Shown here: positions 1-26,379 of the stretch, one piece after another
How the letters are laid out: each line of letters begins with the position of its first letter
How positions within the stretch are numbered: position 1 is the first letter of the stretch
Assembly (NCBI GenBank): GCA_000513055.1
Contig: AZYB01000009.1
Span: forward strand, 1-33,086
DNA: 33,086 nucleotides
From: an alpha proteobacterium SCGC AAA288-N07
GTDB taxonomy: Bacteria > Pseudomonadota > Alphaproteobacteria > Pelagibacterales > Pelagibacteraceae
Direction of reading: 5' to 3'
The notes under the pieces: generated by a model
The model's database searches: none
What the model was told of the DNA's origin: nothing
What the model saw: the letters and a program-made list of their open reading frames with translations, nothing else
Translations under genes and position numbers: made by a program

Positions 1-95
1 TACATCCAAAAGCAATACATCTTTGACATCTCCTTGCAGAACACCTGCTTGTATTGCGGCCCCCATAGCAACTACTTCATCAGGGTTAACACTCT
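1..95. repeat. Left arm of a perfect inverted duplication within dnaK
   Basis: Bases 1-95 are the exact reverse complement of 1132-1226, checked base by base at both ends. The match stops at 95/1132, and the arm may extend left beyond the window. Both arms encode the same DnaK segment, from [13 protein letters not shown] to about VLLLDV. Confidence 0.95.
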
Positions 96-1131
96 TATTC
101 GGTTCTTTACCAAAAAAGTTTTTAACTTCTTCTATTACTTTTGGCATTCTTGTCATTCCACCCACTAATACTACTTCGTTAATTTCTGCAGCGCTTAGTC
201 CAGCATCTTTTAAAGCCATTTTACAAGGAGGTAATGTTTTTTTTATTAAATTTTCAACAAGTGCTTCTAATTTTGCTCTCGTAAATTTCAAGTTAATATG
301 TTTTGGTCCAGTTTTGTCTGCAGTAATAAAAGGGAGATTAACTTCTGTCTGAGTTGCAGACGAAAGTTCTATTTTTGCTTTTTCTGCTGCTTCTTTTAAA
401 CGCTGTAGAGCTAATTTATCAGTCTTAAGATTAATTCCATTTTCTTTCTTAAATTCGCTTAGCAAATAATCTACGATAGTTCTGTCGAAATCTTCACCAC
501 CTAAAAAAGTATCTCCATTAGTTGATTTAACCTCAAATACACCGTCACCTATTTCTAAAATAGAAACATCAAATGTTCCTCCTCCTAAGTCATAAACGGC
601 AATTTTTTTACCACCTTTTTTATCTAAACCATATGCGAGAGATGCTGCTGTTGGTTCGTTAATTATTCTTAAAACTTCAAGGCCTGCAATTTTTCCTGCA
701 TCTTTCGTGGCTTGTCTTTGGGAGTCATTAAAATATGCGGGCACAGTTATTACAGCTTTTGTAACTTCTTGACCAAGATATTTTTCAGCTGTCTCTTTCA
801 TCTTTTGCAAAATAAAAGCAGATATTTGTGAAGGTGAATATTTTTCGCCTCTGGATTCTATCCAGGCATCATTATTATCAGCTTTAATAATTTTAAATGG
901 AGCTACTTGAATATCTTTTTTTACATTGGGGTCATCAAAATTTCTGCCCATTAACCTCTTAACTGCAAAAATAGTATTTTCTGGATTTGTAACAGCCTGT
1001 CTTTTTGCAGGTTGTCCAACTAACTTTTCTTTATTTTCACCAAATGCTACTATCGAAGGCGTTGTTCTAGTCCCTTCAGCATTTTCCAAAACTTTAGCCT
1101 GCGTTCCTTCCATAATAGCAACACAAGAATT
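1..1131 (-). CDS. dnaK: Molecular chaperone DnaK, N-terminal and middle part, in inverted orientation (partial)
   Basis: Read on the - strand, this is one open frame of 377 codons. It starts inside the N-terminal phosphate loop ([11 protein letters not shown], about residue 13) and runs off the window at about residue 389. It contains the Hsp70 ATPase signatures [11 protein letters not shown] and [10 protein letters not shown] and the later [10 protein letters not shown]. Hsp70 is a cytosolic ATP-driven chaperone working with DnaJ and GrpE. The first dozen codons are missing because the frame is cut at 1131/1132, where the sequence switches to a + strand copy of a later part of the same gene. 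Together with 1134-2003 all but about 12 residues of a normal DnaK can be rebuilt. Identity is certain. The orientation is suspicious and is more likely an amplification or assembly chimera than a real rearrangement. Confidence 0.93.
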
Positions 1132-1226
1132 AGAGTGTTAACCCTGATGAAGTAGTTGCTATGGGGGCCGCAATACAAGCAGGTGTTCTGCAAGGAGATG
1201 TCAAAGATGTATTGCTTTTGGATGTA
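1132..1226. repeat. Right arm of a perfect inverted duplication within dnaK
   Basis: This is the partner of 1-95. The junction with the inverted segment at 1131/1132 has no obvious microhomology: the left side follows the normal dnaK start region up to 1131 and the right side follows the normal middle region from 1132. The in-frame codon at 1131-1133 on the + strand is TAG. Confidence 0.95.
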
Positions 1227-17580: not shown

Positions 17581-19453
17581 TTAAGCAGTTTTTCTTAAAG
17601 ATTTTCTTTTTACAAATGATAAAAGTATATAAACAGCTGCTGGAGTAATACCATCTATTCTCAGAGCTTGCCCCATGGTTTGTGGCTTTATCTTCTTAAA
17701 CTTTGATTTTACCTCATTTGAAAGACCATCTAAATCATCAAAATTTATGTTTTTTGGTATAACTAAATTTTCATCTCTTTTAAAAGCTAATATATCAGCT
17801 TTTTGCTTAACTAAATAACCTCTATAATGTGCATTTATTTCAATCTGATCATCTATTTCATCGGAATATTTAATAATTTCAGGCCATATTTTTCGTAATT
17901 TTGAAATATTAACTTCTTTTTGACCTAATATGTAATTTGCAGATCTAACTACACCATCTTTAGCTACTTTTATGCCAAATTTTTCTGCCTTTGATGGTGA
18001 AATTCGTAATTTGTCCAATTTTAATGAAATGCTTCTTATTTTCTTCATTTTATCCTTAAAAAATATTAGTCTGTTCTTGTTAATTAGCCCTATTTTATCA
18101 CCTTTAGCAGTTAATCTTTGGTCTGCATTATCTGCTCTTAAAGATAATCTATACTCAGCTCTAGACGTGAACATGCGATATGGTTCTGAGACACCTTTTG
18201 TTACCAAGTCGTCAATCATGACTCCTATATATGCCTCTGATCTATCCAAAATAAATGGTTCTTGATTTTTAACAGAAAGTGAAGCATTGACCCCAGCAAT
18301 TAAACCCTGCGCGGCGGCTTCTTCATAACCTGTTGTTCCATTAATTTGTCCAGCCAAAAATAAATTTTGGATTTTTTTTGTTTCTAAAGTCAAAAATAGT
18401 TCTCTTGGATCGACGTAATCGTACTCTATTGCATATCCAGGTCTCAAAATCGATACATTCTCTAACCCATTGATTTTACTAAGTATTTCAGCTTGTACAT
18501 CTGCTGGTAAAGAGGTGGAAATTCCATTTGGATAGATTGTATAATCATTTAAACCCTCTGGTTCTAAAAAAATTTGATGTCGGTGTTTGTCGGAGAATTT
18601 TACTATCTTATCTTCGATCGATGGACAATATCTTGGACCGACTCCTTTTATATTACCGGAGTACATCGCACTTCGTTTTAAATTTTTTGAAATAATTTCA
18701 TGAACAACTTTGTTTGTATAAGTCATACGACATGTAATTTGTTTGTTTAGAATTTTTTTTGTTAAAAAGGAAAAATAGTATGGTTTGTCATCAGCATGTT
18801 GTTCTTCCAAATTTTCAAAATTAATTGTACGTCCATCTAACCTTGGTGGAGTTCCAGTTTTTAACCTTCCGATTTTAAAATTAAATTTTTTTAATTGTTC
18901 ACTTAAACCAGCTGAAGATTTTTCATTAAATCTTCCTGCGGGAGTCTGCTTTTCCCCAATATGAATAAGCCCATTTAAAAAAGTTCCTGTTGTCAAAATT
19001 AATTTTTTACAAAAAACTTTTTTTTCTGACTGAGTTTTAAATCCAATTATGCTATTTTCATCAAAAAATAAACTTAATTACTGGATCAGAAAAAACCCTC
19101 AAATTACAATAACTTAGAAGCTTTTTTTGCATAAATTTACGATATAAAGCTCTATCTGACTGAGTTCTTGGACCTCTTACTGCGGGTCCTCTACTTCTAT
19201 TTAACAATCTAAATTGAATACCAGATTTATCTGCTACATCGCCCATAACTCCATCAAGTGCATCAATTTCTCTAACCAAATGTCCTTTTCCAAGACCTCC
19301 GATTGCTGGATTACATGACATTTCACCAATAGTTTCAATTTTATGAGTATACAATGCAGTATTAACACCTAGCCTGGCTGATGCAGCAGCTGCTTCACAG
19401 CCAGCATGACCACCACCAATTACAACAACATCAAATGACAAATCGTTTTCCAT
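17581..19453 (-). CDS. mnmG: tRNA uridine-5-carboxymethylaminomethyl modification enzyme MnmG (single-base frameshift)
   Basis: The FAD partner of MnmE in making cmnm5 modifications at wobble uridine 34 of several tRNAs. The frame from ATG 19453 carries the FAD loop [19 protein letters not shown] and [23 protein letters not shown], then runs into TGA at 19061-19063. The coding continues in another frame with [28 protein letters not shown] and the full C terminus. One surplus T in the six-T run (19063-19068, A's on the + strand) explains the break. Removing it gives 623 residues, the usual size. This could be a read error, a recent mutation or a +1 shift at TTT TGA. rsmG follows without a gap. 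Confidence 0.9.
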
Positions 19454-19491
19454 GTTTAGAATTTATAGATGATCTAAATATTTACAAGAAA

Positions 19492-19519
19492 AGAGATAAT
19501 ATTAATAAAATTATCCTCT
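19492..19519 (-). terminator. Possible hairpin between mnmE and mnmG
   Basis: AGAGATAAT and ATTATCCTCT form an imperfect stem (one bulge) around a 9-base loop, in the gap of about 118 bases between the two genes. On the - strand it is followed by TTTTC. It is AT-rich and weak, so it may be an attenuator or chance pairing. Nothing else was recognised in this gap. Confidence 0.3.
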
Positions 19520-19571
19520 ATTTTATTTACTTTTTTAAAAAAATTGTAAAAATAACCAGTAAAAACGTACT

Positions 19572-20904
19572 TTACTTGCCTATACAAAAATCGTTGAAAA
19601 TACTACCTAAAATCTCCTCTACATCGACTTTTCCTACAATCATACCTAATTGACGAGTGGCCAGTCTTAAATCTTCTGCTGCCTTGTCAAATTCTTCACT
19701 TTTATTTTTATTTTTAAAATTCTTTAAATGGGCAATACATTGTTCAAGATTTTGCCTGTGTCTTTCTCTTGTTATCAAAATATTTTCAGAACTTACAAAT
19801 TTGTTTTTTAATTTATTTTTTATCTTTGAAATTAGTTGATCAAGATTTAAATTATTTTTTACTGAAACTAAAACATGGTCATAATTTTTAATTTGTTTGT
19901 TTAATTTTCCATTTAATAAATCTGATTTATTAATCACTAAAATGGCATTTTTATGCACCAAATCTCTCAAAACACCAGCAAAATCAACATTTTTTGCGTC
20001 TACAATAACAAGCTTTAGATCAGCATCCTCAGCCTTTTTTACAGCAAGTTTAATCCCTTTTTTTTCTATTTCATTTTTTGATTCTCTTATTCCCGCTGTG
20101 TCTGAAATTACAACCGGATACCCGTCTAAATTAAGATGCGTTTCAATTACATCTCTTGTGGTACCTGCAATTTCAGAAACAATTGCTACATCTCTTTTTG
20201 AAAGATAATTTAAAAGGCTGGATTTACCGGCGTTCGTTGGCCCAACAATAGCAATTTTAAAACCTTCTCTAATTCGTTCTCCTACTCTTTGATCGTCTAA
20301 AACTTTTTCTATTTCTTTTGAAACTTGTTCTGAAGTTTTTCTTATTTCTAAAAGAATGTCAGATGGTAAATCTTCATCTGGAAAATCTATTTTTGCTTCA
20401 ATATGAGATAAAATTTTCAAAAGTTTGTCTCTCCATGAATTAAATTGGCTAGACGACTTGCCGCTCATAACTTTTATTGCCTGTTTCCTTTGAATCTCAG
20501 TTTCGGAAGAAATTAAATCTGCAATGCTCTCGGCTTTTAATAAATTTACCTTGCCATTCTGAAATGCAATCTTTGTAAACTCTCCTGGCTCAGCCAACCT
20601 ACAATTTTTTATTTTTGAAATTGAAGAATGTAAAGCAGAGATCACCGCTCTGCTACCATGCACATGAAATTCTGCTAAATCTTCGCCTGTGTAGCTTTTG
20701 GGTCCTGGAAACCATAAAATTACCCCTTCATCAATTAGCATATTTGTGTCGATTTTGTAGAGTTTTTTGAGTGTAGCTACTCTTGGTGGTGGTAATTTCT
20801 CATCTGTCAGTTTTTTTTACAACCTTAGCCGTATCTTTTCCTGACACCCTCACTACAGCAATGCCAGAAATACCCGGTCCAGATGATAATGCATAAATAG
20901 TCAT
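19572..20904 (-). CDS. mnmE: tRNA modification GTPase MnmE (single-base frameshift)
   Basis: The GTPase that works with MnmG. From ATG 20904 the frame reads MTIYALSSGPGISGIAVVRV and reaches the lysines of KVVKK, where an eight-A run in coding sense (20811-20818, T's on the + strand) shifts it into a TGA at 20800-20802. The other frame supplies LTDEKLPPPRVATLKKLYKI and the whole remainder: FHVHGS, the G1 loop GPTNAGKSSLLN, G2 GTTRD, G3 DTAGIRE, G4 NKSD, and the terminal FCIGK with its catalytic-type Cys. Deleting one A gives 443 residues, a normal length. This is either a homopolymer error or a real slippage site. The gene heads the mnmE-to-parB operon. Confidence 0.9.
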
Positions 20905-20925: not shown

Positions 20926-21288
20926 GTGAATTCTTTGTCATTTAAAACAAAATTTGGTTGGATTAGTACTTTTGAAGAAAAAGGAAAGGTAGTAAGGATT
21001 AAATTCGAGAAACATAAAAATAAAGGCACAAGCAATAATTTAAGAAATCTTAAAATTAAAATTAATAGTTTTTTTAATAAAAAGAAAAAAAAAATAAAAT
21101 TTAATTTTCTTATTAAAGGAAATCATTTCCAAAAAAAAGTTTGGTATGAATTAACTAAGATTAAAATAGGTAAAACAAAAAGCTATGGAGAAATTAGATC
21201 TGATGGGACTATGGGTGGCTTTTCTTCAACTGGAGGAATAATTCTTAAAAAAAAACTTTTAAACTTTGAAAAATCATGGATGCAATAA
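20926..21288 (+). CDS. Ogt-type methylated-DNA-cysteine methyltransferase homologue lacking the active-site segment
   Basis: 120 residues, starting at a GTG (a TTG three codons later is also possible). The N-terminal half and KKVWYELTKIKIGKTKSYGEI match the DNA-binding helix region of O6-alkylguanine transferases, and RSDGTMGGFSSTGG with KKLLNFE matches the segment normally after the PCHRV active site. The roughly 30-35 residues between, which include NP-x-AVG and PCHRV with the acceptor Cys, are absent: the join is at about 21195/21196, where ATT may have been shared. The remaining protein cannot accept alkyl groups. This could be a real deletion or an assembly collapse. Its last 13 bases overlap the following gene. 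Confidence 0.8.
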   Translation: MNSLSFKTKFGWISTFEEKGKVVRIKFEKHKNKGTSNNLRNLKIKINSFFNKKKKKIKFNFLIKGNHFQKKVWYELTKIKIGKTKSYGEIRSDGTMGGFSSTGGIILKKKLLNFEKSWMQ

Positions 21289-22004
21289 TTTTGCAACACA
21301 TAAAAATTGAAGATCCAGGGTATATTAAAGATTTGATGCTAACAGATGGATGGAAGCTTACGACTATAGAATTGGACGAGGGAGATAAAATTCCAAATAA
21401 TTTGAATCAATTCGATGCAATGTTTTGCATGGGTGGCCCTATGGATACTTGGATGGAAAAAAAACATCCTTGGCTTATTGAAGAAAAAAACACAATAAAA
21501 GAATTTGTTATTAACTTAAAAAAACCTTTTTTTGGCTTTTGTTTAGGATGTCAACTTTTAGGAGAAGCGATTGGAGGCAAAGTAGTAAAATCCGATCCTG
21601 CAGAAATTGGCATAATGAATGTAGATTTCTCAGGAGCTAAGGAAAATGATACTCTTTTTTCTACATTTCCAGATAAAATCAAAGCCCTTCAATGGCATTC
21701 CTATGAGGTTAAAAATCTTGAAAGTAATAGAGATGTTACTCTTTTAGCTTCTTCTAAAACAACAAAATACCAGATTTTTAAATACCAAAGTCATGCCTAT
21801 GGAATTCAATTTCATATTGAAATTAAAAACACAACTGTCAATGATTGGGGATGCGTTCCTGAATATAAGTTTGCTTTAGAAGCTCAATTCGGAAAGGGCG
21901 CTTTAGAAAAGTTTGATAAAGAAGCAAAATTAAACATGAAGCAAATGAACAATTTTTCAACTATTTTATATTCAAAATTTAAAAGAGAAATTTTAAAAAT
22001 TTAG
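21276..22004 (+). CDS. Class I glutamine amidotransferase-like protein (GMP synthase-type domain)
   Basis: A 242-residue stand-alone GATase1 domain. The nucleophile elbow is GFCLGCQLLGEAIGG, and the His-Glu pair of the triad lies in GIQFHIEI. AMFCMGGPMD is the oxyanion-region strand. Such proteins, annotated as GMP synthase-like amidotransferases, hydrolyse glutamine or gamma-glutamyl substrates, but this one has no synthetase domain, so its acceptor is unknown. It overlaps the Ogt-like gene by 13 bases and converges with the transporter gene, sharing the last four bases. A gamma-glutamyl peptidase role is possible. Confidence 0.86.
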   Translation: MDAIILQHIKIEDPGYIKDLMLTDGWKLTTIELDEGDKIPNNLNQFDAMFCMGGPMDTWMEKKHPWLIEEKNTIKEFVINLKKPFFGFCLGCQLLGEAIGGKVVKSDPAEIGIMNVDFSGAKENDTLFSTFPDKIKALQWHSYEVKNLESNRDVTLLASSKTTKYQIFKYQSHAYGIQFHIEIKNTTVNDWGCVPEYKFALEAQFGKGALEKFDKEAKLNMKQMNNFSTILYSKFKREILKI

Positions 22005-24277
22005 TTTATTAAAGATAAATATTTATTATATAATTTTGCAATATTTGGAACAGTGATATTACAAGTTCTTAGCTTGTCTTCATCTTTCATAATACTATCG
22101 GTTGGGCCATCAATTTCAATTTTTCCATCTTTCATAATGATAAGTCTTTCTGCATAATTCCATGCTAGATGAATATCATGAGTTATTAATATAATTGTTT
22201 TACCTTCTTTATTAAGTTCTTCTATAATTTTCATTAATTTAGTTATTTCATTTTCATCCAGAGTATTTGTTGGTTCATCAAAAATAATTATATCGGGGTC
22301 AATTGCAAGTATAGATGCAATTGTTAATTTTCTTAAATTTTCAGGGGATAAATTAATAGGGTTTTGATTTAATTCTAAACCAAATCTTTCACTTTCAAAT
22401 AAAGTTATTTTATCAATTTGATCTTTTTTAAATTTAAGTTGCTTAGGACCAAATGCTAACTCTTCCCTTACAGTAGTTGAAAGAATTTGATAAGATGGTT
22501 CTTGAAATATATATCCTATTCTTATGTTTTTATCTTTAATTACTTTACCTTTTGTAGGTTTTAATGCATAGCTAAGTACTAAACTTAGTGTCGACTTTCC
22601 TGAACCGTTTGCCCCTAGTATTGCAGTTAATTCATTTTTTTTAAAATTTAAATTTATATTATTTAAAACATTATTTTTTTTGTCATATGAAAAACAAAGG
22701 TTTTCTGTTTGAATAATGTTTTGATTTACATTTTCACTTTTTTCTCTTTTAGGCAAAAAATAATCTTTAATATCGCCGTTTTTAGATACTAGCTCTTTTA
22801 AATTATTTAAATAATATTCAATATTATCTATATTTTTACTAGGCGAAAATTTGAAACCTAATTCTACTAATAATGGAACTCTTCTTCCTGACTCCTTTAA
22901 AATTTTTATAAAATCTTTATTACTTTTATCTATTAATTCTATAGCTTTATCTTTTACTAAATATATTTTATCAAATTCGAGAGGATTTAAATTTGGTTCC
23001 GATAGTATTATTGATTGATCTGAACTAATTCGATTTATGGATTCAATAACTTCTTCCTTTCCTACAGGGTCTAATTGACCAGTAACTTCATCAAAAAGAA
23101 GCAATTCTGGTTCAGCAATTAAAGCGGAAGCAATCGCAACCCTTTGTTGTTGGCCACCTGACAAAGATAAAGTTTTTCTCTTTAGAAAACTTTCATCTAG
23201 ACCTACTAGTTTAAGAATTTTTAATTTTTGCTCCTTCCACTTTGATTTATCAATTTTTGACCTTAAAAGACTTAATTCTAATTCATCATCTATTCTTATT
23301 CCAACAAGCCCATGTGCAGCACTTGGAAAAACTATTCTTACTATTTGAGATAATTCTCCAAGAGTTAAATCTTCTGTATTATTTCCAAATATGTTAATTG
23401 TACCAGTATATTGACCAATAGTTCTTGAAAATAATCCTCGAGATAAAATCAAAGTACTACTTTTTCCTGATCCATTTTCTCCAATTAACATTATTTTTTC
23501 ACCTTTATTAAACTGTAAATTTATATTTTTAAGAACAAAATCATTATCAGGCATATCTTTACTTAAATTATATGTTGTTGAGGCTTTTAATATTTCAAAT
23601 TTATTACTATTTTTTGTATTGATAAAAGATTGTGATGTTGAGGTTCCTCCAAGATTATCTACAGCTAAACTTTGTTGGTTAATATGACCAATTAATCTAA
23701 ATATCATAGGAACAGGTATTAATCTTAAACCTTGGATTTTATCTAAAACTGAGCCTTCCCATTTTATACCTCTAATAGCCATTGATTGTTGTAATGTGGT
23801 AAATTCTTTATTTAGTAAATCTATATATCTAAGAACAATCATTAAATATATTTGACCTTTGTGAGGAAGTTTTAATGATTTTGCGGTATCAAATAAATCT
23901 TCTAAAGAAGTTACAGAAATATAGGCAATAGCAAAAAGGATCATAAAAAATAATCTTAATCCTAGTATAGCGCCTGTCTCTAAACCTCCTTCTGTTAGAG
24001 TTAGTGGCCCAAGAGTCAAAATAATATTGCCAGAATGATGGATAAATATATTTCCTACGAAACTTAAAAATCCTGCTACGGTACAAGTTATTAAACCTAA
24101 CTTGAAATATACTCTTCCTGATAAATATATGATTGTTACAACGATTCCTGAAACAGCTACGCCTGCCCAATTGTAAGTAAAAAAAGTGCTAGCTAAACTT
24201 AATACAACAAAGAAAATAAATCTTGGAAGGGGGGCTAATGCCCCCATTCCAAATCTATTTTTTTGATCTAAACCCAT
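22001..24277 (-). CDS. ECF-type vitamin transporter, fused T-A-A' protein
   Basis: 758 residues joining three ECF parts in one chain. Residues 1-205 are an EcfT-like membrane domain with about five or six hydrophobic segments and the coupling motif SMAIRG. NBD1 has Walker A GENGSGKSS (266-274), signature LSGGQQQR (about 372-379) and LLLFDEVTG, but its Q-loop Gln is replaced (IVFPSA) and the switch His is missing (IILSEPN). NBD2 has Walker A GANGSGKST (555-563), IFQEPS, LLITHD-like IILITHD, and FDEPTNTLD, but its signature is LSPEN. So one ATP site is canonical and one degenerate. It energises the S component encoded upstream. The T-A-A' fusion is unusual; separate genes are the norm. Confidence 0.9.
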   Translation of the reverse strand: MGLDQKNRFGMGALAPLPRFIFFVVLSLASTFFTYNWAGVAVSGIVVTIIYLSGRVYFKLGLITCTVAGFLSFVGNIFIHHSGNIILTLGPLTLTEGGLETGAILGLRLFFMILFAIAYISVTSLEDLFDTAKSLKLPHKGQIYLMIVLRYIDLLNKEFTTLQQSMAIRGIKWEGSVLDKIQGLRLIPVPMIFRLIGHINQQSLAVDNLGGTSTSQSFINTKNSNKFEILKASTTYNLSKDMPDNDFVLKNINLQFNKGEKIMLIGENGSGKSSTLILSRGLFSRTIGQYTGTINIFGNNTEDLTLGELSQIVRIVFPSAAHGLVGIRIDDELELSLLRSKIDKSKWKEQKLKILKLVGLDESFLKRKTLSLSGGQQQRVAIASALIAEPELLLFDEVTGQLDPVGKEEVIESINRISSDQSIILSEPNLNPLEFDKIYLVKDKAIELIDKSNKDFIKILKESGRRVPLLVELGFKFSPSKNIDNIEYYLNNLKELVSKNGDIKDYFLPKREKSENVNQNIIQTENLCFSYDKKNNVLNNINLNFKKNELTAILGANGSGKSTLSLVLSYALKPTKGKVIKDKNIRIGYIFQEPSYQILSTTVREELAFGPKQLKFKKDQIDKITLFESERFGLELNQNPINLSPENLRKLTIASILAIDPDIIIFDEPTNTLDENEITKLMKIIEELNKEGKTIILITHDIHLAWNYAERLIIMKDGKIEIDGPTDSIMKDEDKLRTCNITVPNIAKLYNKYLSLIN

Positions 24278-24298
24278 TCATTATAGTTTTTATAAAAC

Positions 24299-25042
24299 TT
24301 AATAGGTTGATAGACCTCTTCTTTTCATTTCGCCCGTCAAAGAAAATAAGACACCAAGACCAAGTATGCTTGCCACTATGTCTCCCATTGCCCAACCAGG
24401 GAAAACTATTGTCCAAGCTGATGCACCCATTTCACCAATGCTAGCCCAAACATAAGCCCCCATTGCTGCACTTACTACGCTAGCTATTACAACTGCAATT
24501 ACTGCCTTGAACACGTTTTCATCGAGTTTAAATGCTGCTTTAGTTGTTTGTGCTAAAATATACCAACCAACTACACATATTAAACCAGCAATTACTCTTC
24601 CCCAAATTCCTAAAGATGGAGCTAGGTAATAACCTGCTATCATTGCAACAATTATAGTTACTGCAACTAAAACGGTACTTTTAACTAAATCTGCACTATT
24701 AGCTTGACCACTAGACAAGTCAATTTTCATTGCTTTAAACAAATAATAAAGAAGTAGAGTATTTGCAAAAAAAGCAGGAATTGGGTTTTGACCAATATTA
24801 ATAGCTATTGGATTACCTGCCAAAGCACCTCCTATAAATGTTCCTATGGCGGCTGCTATCCATCCGTATGGTCCAAACCAAATTGCTCCCGTTACCATAA
24901 ATATACATGGTAACCAAAAGAAACTTGCGCCAGCTGCCCCTGGAATTGATAAAAGCATTGAGCATAGATAAGCAGAAGCAACTATAGCGGCTGCCCAAAT
25001 AGCTGAAGCTACAAAAATTCCAGTTCCAGATTTTGTACTCAT
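24299..25042 (-). CDS. ECF transporter S component (substrate-binding membrane protein)
   Basis: 247 residues with about six hydrophobic helices (for example FVASAIWAAAIVASAYLCSM, VTIIVAMIAGYYLA and AVIAVVIASVVSAAMG) and a Gly/Pro-rich WFGPYGWIAAAIGTFIGG stretch reminiscent of the S-component core. There is no ATP-binding motif. Its position 21 bases upstream of the fused T-A-A' gene identifies the role: it binds the vitamin or precursor and docks with the energising module. The substrate cannot be read from sequence. A strong Shine-Dalgarno (TAGGGAGG on the - strand) lies in a 95-base leader, where a possible 4-bp stem (CCCT with AGGG) touches it. Confidence 0.82.
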   Translation of the reverse strand: MSTKSGTGIFVASAIWAAAIVASAYLCSMLLSIPGAAGASFFWLPCIFMVTGAIWFGPYGWIAAAIGTFIGGALAGNPIAINIGQNPIPAFFANTLLLYYLFKAMKIDLSSGQANSADLVKSTVLVAVTIIVAMIAGYYLAPSLGIWGRVIAGLICVVGWYILAQTTKAAFKLDENVFKAVIAVVIASVVSAAMGAYVWASIGEMGASAWTIVFPGWAMGDIVASILGLGVLFSLTGEMKRRGLSTY

Positions 25043-25137
25043 ATTTTTCCTCCCTAAATGATTCTACGAGGGTAATACACTATGACATTATTTAAAGTAT
25101 ATAAAGAAAGTAATTTGATTCTTGTTTTTATTTAAAT

Positions 25138-25881
25138 TTATTTTTTATCTAAGATTTTTTTTAGTTCTCGTAATGGTGGAGTTGCTTCTAACATACCTTT
25201 TTCTAGTAAATTCCAGTAAATTCCAGAAGGTCGACTTTTATTTCTGTTTGTGGATAACTTTTGTTTATTGGTAATTATCAAATCAACTATTATATCTGTT
25301 TCGCTTGGCTCAAGATCAAAATCAACTACTTGTACATCATGGACCACTGCAATAATGGATGTATTTTCATCAACAATTTTTAAATCAGCAAACATTCCCC
25401 ATTCAAGATCAAAAAAACCATGTCCCTTTCCGAACCTAACCCCATTCTTTGATACAGCGGATGCACCTGTTAACATTAAATCTATTTTTCCTAAATTCTT
25501 AATTTCTTTTAGGGAAATATTTTTACCAAAATGCTCTAAACCATCTAGGGTACTTGCAAAAACTTCATTTCCTTTATTTACCATATTTTTTGTGATTAAA
25601 ATTAATCCCCTATAGATCCCATATGTTGAAACAATTATATCTTTGTCATCTTTAATTGCTTGTTCTCTTATTGTTGTTAGGCAATTATCGGGGGTAATGA
25701 ATAATAACTTTGATTTCTTGTATTCTTCACTTTTAATAATTTTTTCATGAGCATTTACACTATCTTTAAAATCAGGAATATATTCTTCAAAATTCAAATG
25801 AAATCTTGAGTCTGGTAAAGCAACATTTTTTAGCTTTTGCCATACTTTTAAACGTATTTGTTGTTTCTCTTGTTTATCCAT
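25138..25881 (-). CDS. COG0212 5-formyltetrahydrofolate cyclo-ligase paralogue
   Basis: 247 residues of the 5-FCL fold. The family's ATP/substrate loop is GVRFGKGHGFFDLEWG, and there are VVHDVQVVDFDLEPSETD and DLIITNKQKL near the end. The protein is longer than true 5-FCL (about 180-200 residues), with an extended N terminus, matching COG0212-type paralogues, which published comparative genomics has tied to thiamin metabolism rather than folate. The S component lies 95 bases downstream on the same strand, so the operon is probably COG0212, then S, then T-A-A'. A folate-specific role is the alternative. The EVE gene diverges upstream. Confidence 0.8.
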   Translation of the reverse strand: MDKQEKQQIRLKVWQKLKNVALPDSRFHLNFEEYIPDFKDSVNAHEKIIKSEEYKKSKLLFITPDNCLTTIREQAIKDDKDIIVSTYGIYRGLILITKNMVNKGNEVFASTLDGLEHFGKNISLKEIKNLGKIDLMLTGASAVSKNGVRFGKGHGFFDLEWGMFADLKIVDENTSIIAVVHDVQVVDFDLEPSETDIIVDLIITNKQKLSTNRNKSRPSGIYWNLLEKGMLEATPPLRELKKILDKK

Positions 25882-25956
25882 AAATTAGTATATTATAATA
25901 ATATTAAATATATCTATATAATATTTTTTTTACGAATAATAACTGAAAGAATATAA
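25882..25956. promoter_or_regulatory. Divergent promoter region between the COG0212 and EVE genes
   Basis: 75 almost purely AT bases with TATAAT at 25894-25899 and at 25917-25922 on the + strand and ATTATA at 25892-25897, a -10-like box for the - strand gene. The + gene starts 35 bases after the second box. In DNA this AT-rich such boxes arise by chance, so confidence is limited. Confidence 0.35.
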
Positions 25957-26379
25957 ATGAAATTTTGGTTGCTCAAAACTGAGCCCGAAAATTGGTCTTG
26001 GGGGAATCAATTAAATTCAAAAAATAAAATTGCAGAATGGAATGGAGTAAGAAATTATCAAGCATCCAGAAATTTGAAAAGTATGAAAAAAAATGATTTA
26101 TGTTTTTTTTATCATACAGGCAAAGAAAAAAAAATAGTAGGAATTGTTAAAATAATTAAAGAACATTTTATTGATAAGTCAGATAAAACTAAAAAGTTTG
26201 TATCGGTGCTTGTTCGTGCTGAAGTTAAATTAACAAAAGCAGTAACTTTGGAAGATATCAAAAATAATGAGTTTTTTAAAGAATTTGTACTAATAAAACA
26301 AAAGCGATTATCTGTTATGGAAGTTAATACAAAATACTGGAAAAAAATATGTAAGATAGGTAAAATGAATCTATATTAA
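25957..26379 (+). CDS. EVE domain protein
   Basis: 140 residues forming a complete EVE domain (PUA-like fold). It begins [15 protein letters not shown], the usual EVE N terminus, followed by [38 protein letters not shown], and the C-terminal [23 protein letters not shown] proteins bind modified bases in DNA or RNA, and bacterial stand-alone copies are of uncertain role. No modification enzyme is next to it. acs begins 10 bases after its stop with a weak ribosome-binding site, so co-transcription is likely. Confidence 0.9.

What the first reader, a model, noticed from the sequence alone, without database searches (positions are those of the whole stretch)
22001..25881. ECF transporter next to a COG0212 paralogue: a candidate thiamin-related uptake locus
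The COG0212 5-FCL paralogue has been linked to thiamin metabolism by comparative genomics (Pribat and colleagues, 2011, recalled from memory). It lies upstream of the S component and T-A-A' gene on the same strand. Marine SAR11 cells need a thiamin precursor (HMP) from outside, and a ThiE/TenI-like gene is in the same window. The module may import thiamin, HMP or a related compound. I saw no TPP riboswitch upstream, which leaves other vitamins open.
Basis: partly seen in the sequence, partly recalled or inferred. Interest (0 to 1): 0.6.

Follow-up and report, generated by a model that had tools for sequence, protein, structure and literature searches.

The report
SAR11 vitamin-type importer gene cassette
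A few ocean bacteria of one SAR11 genus carry a self-contained three-gene cassette for an ATP-driven importer of an unrecognised type plus a mysterious vitamin-B1-linked enzyme, probably to take up a thiamin-like or other nitrogen-ring compound, but the exact cargo is still unknown.

Summary
On the minus strand lie a COG0212-type 5-FCL paralogue (25138-25881), an orphan membrane protein in the S-component position (24299-25042) and a fused T-A-A' ECF protein (22001-24277). They form one discrete 3.9-kb cassette. Three Pelagibacteraceae copies sit in three different flanks, homology stops at the cassette edges, and all three genes are under purifying selection (dN/dS 0.05-0.17). All three genes are absent from the other Pelagibacterales searched, including 55 near-complete genomes.

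New support for a thiamin-like cargo: the closest outside relatives of this COG0212 (52-54% identity), in three other alphaproteobacteria, each start an operon for an ABC importer. Its THI5/NMT1-type binding proteins match ThiY (thiamin-pyrimidine binder) best in the PDB where searched (two of three).

Against it: no TPP riboswitch is found at the cassette. A sister genome with the cassette already has riboswitch-linked thiV elsewhere. The window's ThiE-like gene is 14 kb away. The S protein matches no known S family. Related COG0212 or ABC genes also sit beside nucleoside hydrolase and deaminase genes. So a dedicated importer plus COG0212 is near certain; thiamin vitamer is the leading but unproven cargo, with other amino-N-heterocycles the main rival.

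The parts
21998..25962 (-). Whole cassette: the stretch homologous between the copies in three genomes
   Evidence: blastn: homology with L006 spans window 21998-25962 (92.7%), with L005 slightly less (86.5%); flanks unrelated
25138..25881 (-). COG0212-type paralogue of 5-formyltetrahydrofolate cyclo-ligase (247 aa)
   Evidence: PF01812 60 bits; second copy besides the canonical 5-FCL at G000:C24:6953-7480; R-x-GKGxGxxD core kept, C-terminal extension
25043..25137 (-). Intergenic spacer with a strong Shine-Dalgarno sequence before S; no conserved RNA structure
   Evidence: alignment of 3 copies; folding no better than shuffles; no Rfam match
24299..25042 (-). Putative ECF substrate-binding S component (247 aa integral membrane protein), orphan family
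   Evidence: position between COG0212 and T-A-A'; hydrophobic helices and AxxxA repeats at residues 14-22; strongest purifying selection of the three (dN/dS 0.045-0.09); no family match
22001..24277 (-). Fused ECF module: T (CbiQ-like, aa 21-197), ATPase A (from about aa 245), ATPase A' (aa 522-752)
   Evidence: Pfam/NCBIfam; Walker A at 266 and 555, LSGGQ at 372; A' signature degenerate (LSPEN in the window and L006, LSPED in L005)

Best explanation
The locus is a self-contained, horizontally spread cassette for a group-I-like ECF importer. The orphan membrane protein binds the cargo outside. The fused T-A-A' protein turns ATP hydrolysis into toppling of the S component and release of the cargo inside. 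The COG0212 protein, encoded as the first gene of the same run, then acts on the imported compound with ATP. The most likely cargo is a thiamin-related pyrimidine: thiamin, or a vitamer such as HMP or its amino/formylamino degradation products. Shown: anatomy, co-inheritance, purifying selection, and the link of the same COG0212 clade to THI5/ThiY-like importers. Inferred: S function, co-transcription, transport cycle, COG0212 activity, cargo.
For: T and two ATPase domains in one intact ORF. One S candidate in the operon and no other CbiQ or PF12822 gene in the genome. Three copies in three flanks with homology ending at the cassette edges and dN/dS 0.05-0.17. All three genes in the same genomes and nowhere else in Pelagibacterales. 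The closest outside COG0212 genes (52-54%) each start an operon with a THI5-type binding protein, an ATPase and a fused permease, next to an RpiR regulator: Roseinatronobacter, G100, G734. The binding proteins of the first two are NMT1/THI5 by Pfam (137-142 bits), and their best PDB match is 3ix1, the N-formyl-4-amino-5-aminomethyl-2-methylpyrimidine binding protein (2.5e-14 and 1.8e-11). COG0212 listed as 'not a 5-FCL enzyme; involved in thiamine salvage' (PMC3223725). Canonical 5-FCL is separate.
Against: No TPP riboswitch at the cassette, although 52 of 61 relatives have one elsewhere. G002 already has thiV behind a TPP riboswitch. S matches no ThiT, YkoE or other S family, and its AF2 model is too poor to use (pLDDT 46). 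THI5/NMT1 is a broad family. A related importer in Rhizobium ACO-34A has no COG0212 nearby and sits in a catabolic-looking cluster with adenosine- and cytidine-deaminase-family genes.
Confidence: 0.5

Rival explanations
1. The cassette imports another amino-N-heterocycle (nucleobase, nucleoside or a modified or damaged one), and COG0212 is a kinase- or ligase-like enzyme acting on it; the thiamin link of some COG0212 genes is only one case of this.
For: Rhizobium pRL1 COG0212 (41%) abuts an inosine-uridine nucleoside hydrolase and lies near PfkB kinases and a sugar-type ABC importer. Roseinatronobacter has a second COG0212-like gene beside a BMP-family ABC importer. A related THI5-type importer in ACO-34A sits with adenosine- and cytidine-deaminase-family genes. 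The L005 copy is next to adenosine deaminase. No TPP riboswitch.
Against: The adenosine deaminase is not part of the cassette (absent beside the other two copies). The nearest COG0212 genes have THI5/ThiY-type importers and no nucleoside genes next to them in G100 and G734. The published COG0212 link is to thiamin (PMC3223725).
Confidence: 0.3
2. A folate importer: S binds folate or 5-formyl-THF and COG0212 recycles it as a true 5-FCL.
For: COG0212 shares the 5-FCL family (PF01812) and most of the ATP-site core; ECF folate importers (FolT) exist (PMC7145868).
Against: The genome has its own canonical 5-FCL. COG0212 lacked detectable 5-FCL activity in the cited work (PMC3223725). S has no match to any S-family model. 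No folate-synthesis gene was recognised near the three copies.
Confidence: 0.08
3. An importer of an unrelated vitamin or metal (for example biotin, cobalamin, nickel or cobalt) with COG0212 as a passenger.
For: S family unknown; ECF importers cover many vitamins and metals; no regulatory signal.
Against: COG0212 is first gene in all three copies and itself under purifying selection; the same COG0212 clade leads importer operons elsewhere, so a passenger role is unlikely.
Confidence: 0.12

Closest known systems
Group I ECF transporters, e.g. YkoEDC (thiamin; YkoE S component) of Bacillus
   Same: One S component encoded with its own ECF module; CbiQ-like T and two ATPases; no binding protein
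   Different: T, A and A' are one polypeptide here; S has no detectable similarity to YkoE or other S families; A' signature motif degenerate; no TPP riboswitch
COG0212 (5-FCL-like protein of Arabidopsis At1g76730 and of archaea and bacteria)
   Same: PF01812 paralogue with GKGxGxxD core, C-terminal extension, present besides canonical 5-FCL, next to transporter genes
   Different: Partner is an ECF importer rather than a periplasmic-binding-protein ABC importer; biochemical role unknown in both
ThiXYZ / ThiY-type ABC importer (FAMP-binding ThiY, PDB 3ix1)
   Same: Binding proteins of the operons led by the nearest COG0212 homologues match ThiY best in the PDB (two tested)
   Different: Not present in the SAR11 cassette, which has an ECF importer in its place; similarity to ThiY is modest, cargo untested
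ThiV, sodium:HMP symporter of SAR11
   Same: Likely the same nutritional field (B1 vitamers) in the same organisms
   Different: Different transporter class, conserved in SAR11, TPP-riboswitch controlled; at another locus in G002

Membership tests
ECF transporter | T component (CbiQ-like transmembrane protein) | tested here: met
   PF02361 65 bits against cut-off 25
ECF transporter | Two ECF-type ATPases | tested here: met
   two ABC_tran domains; ECF ATPase models TIGR04520/04521 at about 302 bits, slightly under their 315/330 cut-offs; A' signature degenerate
ECF transporter | S component with the conserved core fold | tested here: inconclusive
   hydrophobic protein in S position with AxxxA in helix 1, but no family match and AF2 model with pLDDT 46
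ECF transporter | Group I: dedicated S encoded with its module (PMC7145868) | tested here: met
   one S candidate in the operon, no other T gene or PF12822 match in the genome; caveat: assembly 66% complete
Known thiamin/HMP S families (ThiT, YkoE, ECF_trnsprt and others) | Match to the family's profile | tested here: not met
   no S-family model in Pfam or NCBIfam even at E up to 10; remote relationship not excluded
COG0212 | PF01812 paralogue distinct from and additional to canonical 5-FCL | tested here: met
   G000 has both; sequence clearly apart from canonical copies
COG0212 | No 5-FCL activity, role in thiamin metabolism | not testable with these tools
   needs enzyme assay or genetics; literature only (PMC3223725)
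TPP regulon | TPP riboswitch upstream | tested here: not met
   no Rfam match in the window or beside the other copies; G002's riboswitch is on another contig

The most novel reading that the evidence does not exclude
A new family of ECF S component that binds a thiamin vitamer other than HMP (for example thiamin, AmMP or FAMP) gives some SAR11 cells a second, mobile B1 supply route, with COG0212 as the so far unidentified enzyme that makes the imported vitamer usable.
Probability: 0.27. Interest if true: 0.75.

Novelty: new variant of a known kind. Interest (0 to 1): 0.47.

Why it matters
ECF importers were found here in no other Pelagibacterales genome (2 of 148 searched, both from this genus). 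SAR11 dominates the surface ocean and its tested members are HMP auxotrophs, and a 2023 study still asks which transporters carry FAMP and AmMP (PMC10470507). A three-gene cassette that always carries COG0212, plus the COG0212-ThiY-like operons in other alphaproteobacteria, gives a compact way to test both the cargo and the long-unknown role of COG0212: express S and measure binding, then ask what COG0212 does to the bound compound.

Tried and rejected
S homologue searches in 385 alphaproteobacteria, genome contigs, viral contigs and plasmids gave only the same genus; L003 and L004 were chance hits. T-A-A' searches in 240 Alphaproteobacteria and 299 Pseudomonadota found no fused relative, only separate A-A' proteins in one genus, with their own small S gene. 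AF2 of S on three near-identical sequences gave pLDDT 46, and fold searches returned rhodopsin-like helical bundles that mean nothing at that confidence; ECF S components did not appear in those lists, which excludes nothing. RNA structure in the S leader: no better than shuffles. The viral contig L051 looked like a phage-borne copy; more likely it is host DNA next to a tRNA-Leu(TAA) fragment where an integrated element begins. Adenosine deaminase next to the L005 copy was rejected as part of the cassette because the other two copies lack it.

Full report
Observation. The three ORFs exist as described. Window 22001-24277(-) encodes 758 aa: a CbiQ-like T domain (aa 21-197) followed by two ABC ATPase domains. 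24299-25042(-) encodes a 247-aa hydrophobic protein without any Pfam or NCBIfam family that makes sense, even at E up to 10. 25138-25881(-) encodes a 247-aa PF01812 protein. Gene order on the strand is COG0212, S, TAA', with 95 and 21 nt between them. The S leader has a strong Shine-Dalgarno sequence and no conserved structure.

Organism. The window is contig C9 of a 0.95-Mb, 66% complete genome.

A discrete cassette. Besides the window, the block occurs in L006 (AG-464-P07) and L005 (a Pelagibacteraceae MAG). Nucleotide homology covers window 21998-25962 and stops there on both sides. The three flanks differ. The window has a GATase gene and EVE-acs. L006 has NAD kinase and dehydrogenase/GcvT-family genes on one side and tRNA-Leu(TAA) plus a glycosyltransferase on the other. 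L005 has adenosine deaminase. In relatives the EVE gene lies next to a gene that looks like tsaD (by its sequence); G002 and G003 have other genes inserted there, so it is a variable site. The viral contig L051 shows another TAA' (92%) followed by a tRNA-Leu piece and an integrase-like gene. dN/dS between copies is 0.078-0.171 (COG0212), 0.045-0.090 (S) and 0.103-0.135 (TAA') at dS 0.18-0.87, so all three genes are conserved by selection.

Distribution. S: 2 of 61 relatives at full length (a third hit is spurious) and none in 385 alphaproteobacteria apart from the window's own (one spurious hit). CbiQ: 2 of 148. COG0212 protein: the same 2 of 148. The 55 genomes at least 90% complete all lack it. 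Absence from incomplete genomes is weak evidence; absence from the near-complete ones is stronger. The GC3 of the three genes (0.13-0.21) is like the rest of the window, so the gain is not very recent or came from an AT-rich donor. Donor and S relatives remain unknown.

What COG0212 tells. The genome has a canonical 5-FCL elsewhere (G000:C24:6953-7480), so the cassette copy is an extra paralogue. It keeps the R-x-GKGxGxxD core, has different middle regions and carries a C-terminal extension. Its nearest relatives found outside SAR11 are at 52-54% identity: Roseinatronobacter sp. S2, G100 and G734 (identities). In all three it is the first gene of an operon COG0212 - binding protein - ATPase - fused permease, with a MurR/RpiR regulator beside it (RpiR in G100 by Pfam; in G734 read from the sequence). 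The three binding proteins are 65-79% identical to each other. Those of G100 and Roseinatronobacter are NMT1/THI5-family. Their best PDB match is 3ix1, the FAMP-binding ThiY (2.5e-14, 1.8e-11), then 4nmy, which I recall as a thiamin-bound protein (not checked). So one COG0212 clade is linked to importers of two unrelated classes, a THI5-type ABC importer and, in SAR11, an ECF importer. The simplest reading is that COG0212 acts on what is imported and that the cargo is of the same kind. Literature held here lists COG0212 as 'not a 5-FCL enzyme; involved in thiamine salvage' (PMC3223725) and as co-expressed with THIC in plants (PMC4120688). The original Pribat 2011 paper was not available.

What speaks for caution. 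No TPP riboswitch lies at the cassette copies or the COG0212-ABC operon tested (G100 and G734 were not scanned). In Pelagibacterales such riboswitches are found in 52 of 61 genomes, and in G002 it precedes a thiV-like symporter gene on another contig (thiV by its place behind the riboswitch and its 485-aa symporter sequence). SAR11 thiV is the known HMP route (PMC11452348). If the cassette serves B1, it is an addition, not a replacement, and differently regulated. The 41% relative in Rhizobium pRL1 lies beside a nucleoside hydrolase and near PfkB kinases. A related importer without COG0212 in Rhizobium ACO-34A sits with adenosine- and cytidine-deaminase, isochorismatase and FMN-oxidoreductase family genes. 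Thus the wider neighbourhood points to amino-N-heterocycles, of which thiamin pyrimidines are the best supported but not the only candidates.

Mechanism. By established knowledge of ECF importers (PMC7145868), S binds the cargo outside, topples onto T, and ATP binding and hydrolysis by A and A' reset it. Here T, A and A' are one chain. A has an intact LSGGQ signature; A' has LSPEN or LSPED in its place in the copies, so one of the two ATP sites is probably impaired, as in other asymmetric ABC pairs (inference). S carries AxxxA repeats in helix 1, the kind of packing motif by which S components dock on T (from memory). All this is inferred from sequence.

Verdict. Real, conserved, apparently mobile ECF cassette with a COG0212 enzyme; a new variant of a known kind. 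Thiamin-related cargo about 0.5, other amino-N-heterocycle about 0.3, folate or unrelated cargo about 0.2 together.

Noticed in passing
window 20926-21288: Ogt/MGMT-like gene that seems to lack the catalytic PCHRV segment: the sequence runs from 'KSYGEI' straight to 'RSDGTMGGF', leaving a 120-aa ORF. Probably a broken gene or an assembly deletion.
   Followed up: partly
window 17581-20900: mnmG and mnmE are each split by a frame change near the 5' end (around 19060 and 20815): the missing N-terminal parts are readable in another frame. Assembly error or decay; the cassette genes are intact.
   Followed up: partly
window 1-1150: Start of the contig looks like dnaK 5' DNA in inverted orientation ahead of the dnaK C-terminal part, a likely chimera at a contig end.
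   Followed up: partly
L051 1-2318: Integrase-like gene and a tRNA-Leu(TAA) remnant directly after a TAA' copy in an IMG/VR contig: the cassette lies at an integration hot spot in one SAR11 lineage.
   Followed up: partly
L052 4991-8720: Two different COG0212-type genes within 4 kb on a Roseinatronobacter plasmid, each beside its own ABC importer (BMP family and THI5 type).
   Followed up: partly
L105 514-3986: Three unrelated genes inserted between the tsaD-like gene and EVE in G003, the same junction where the window has broken synteny: a variable site in this genus.
   Followed up: no
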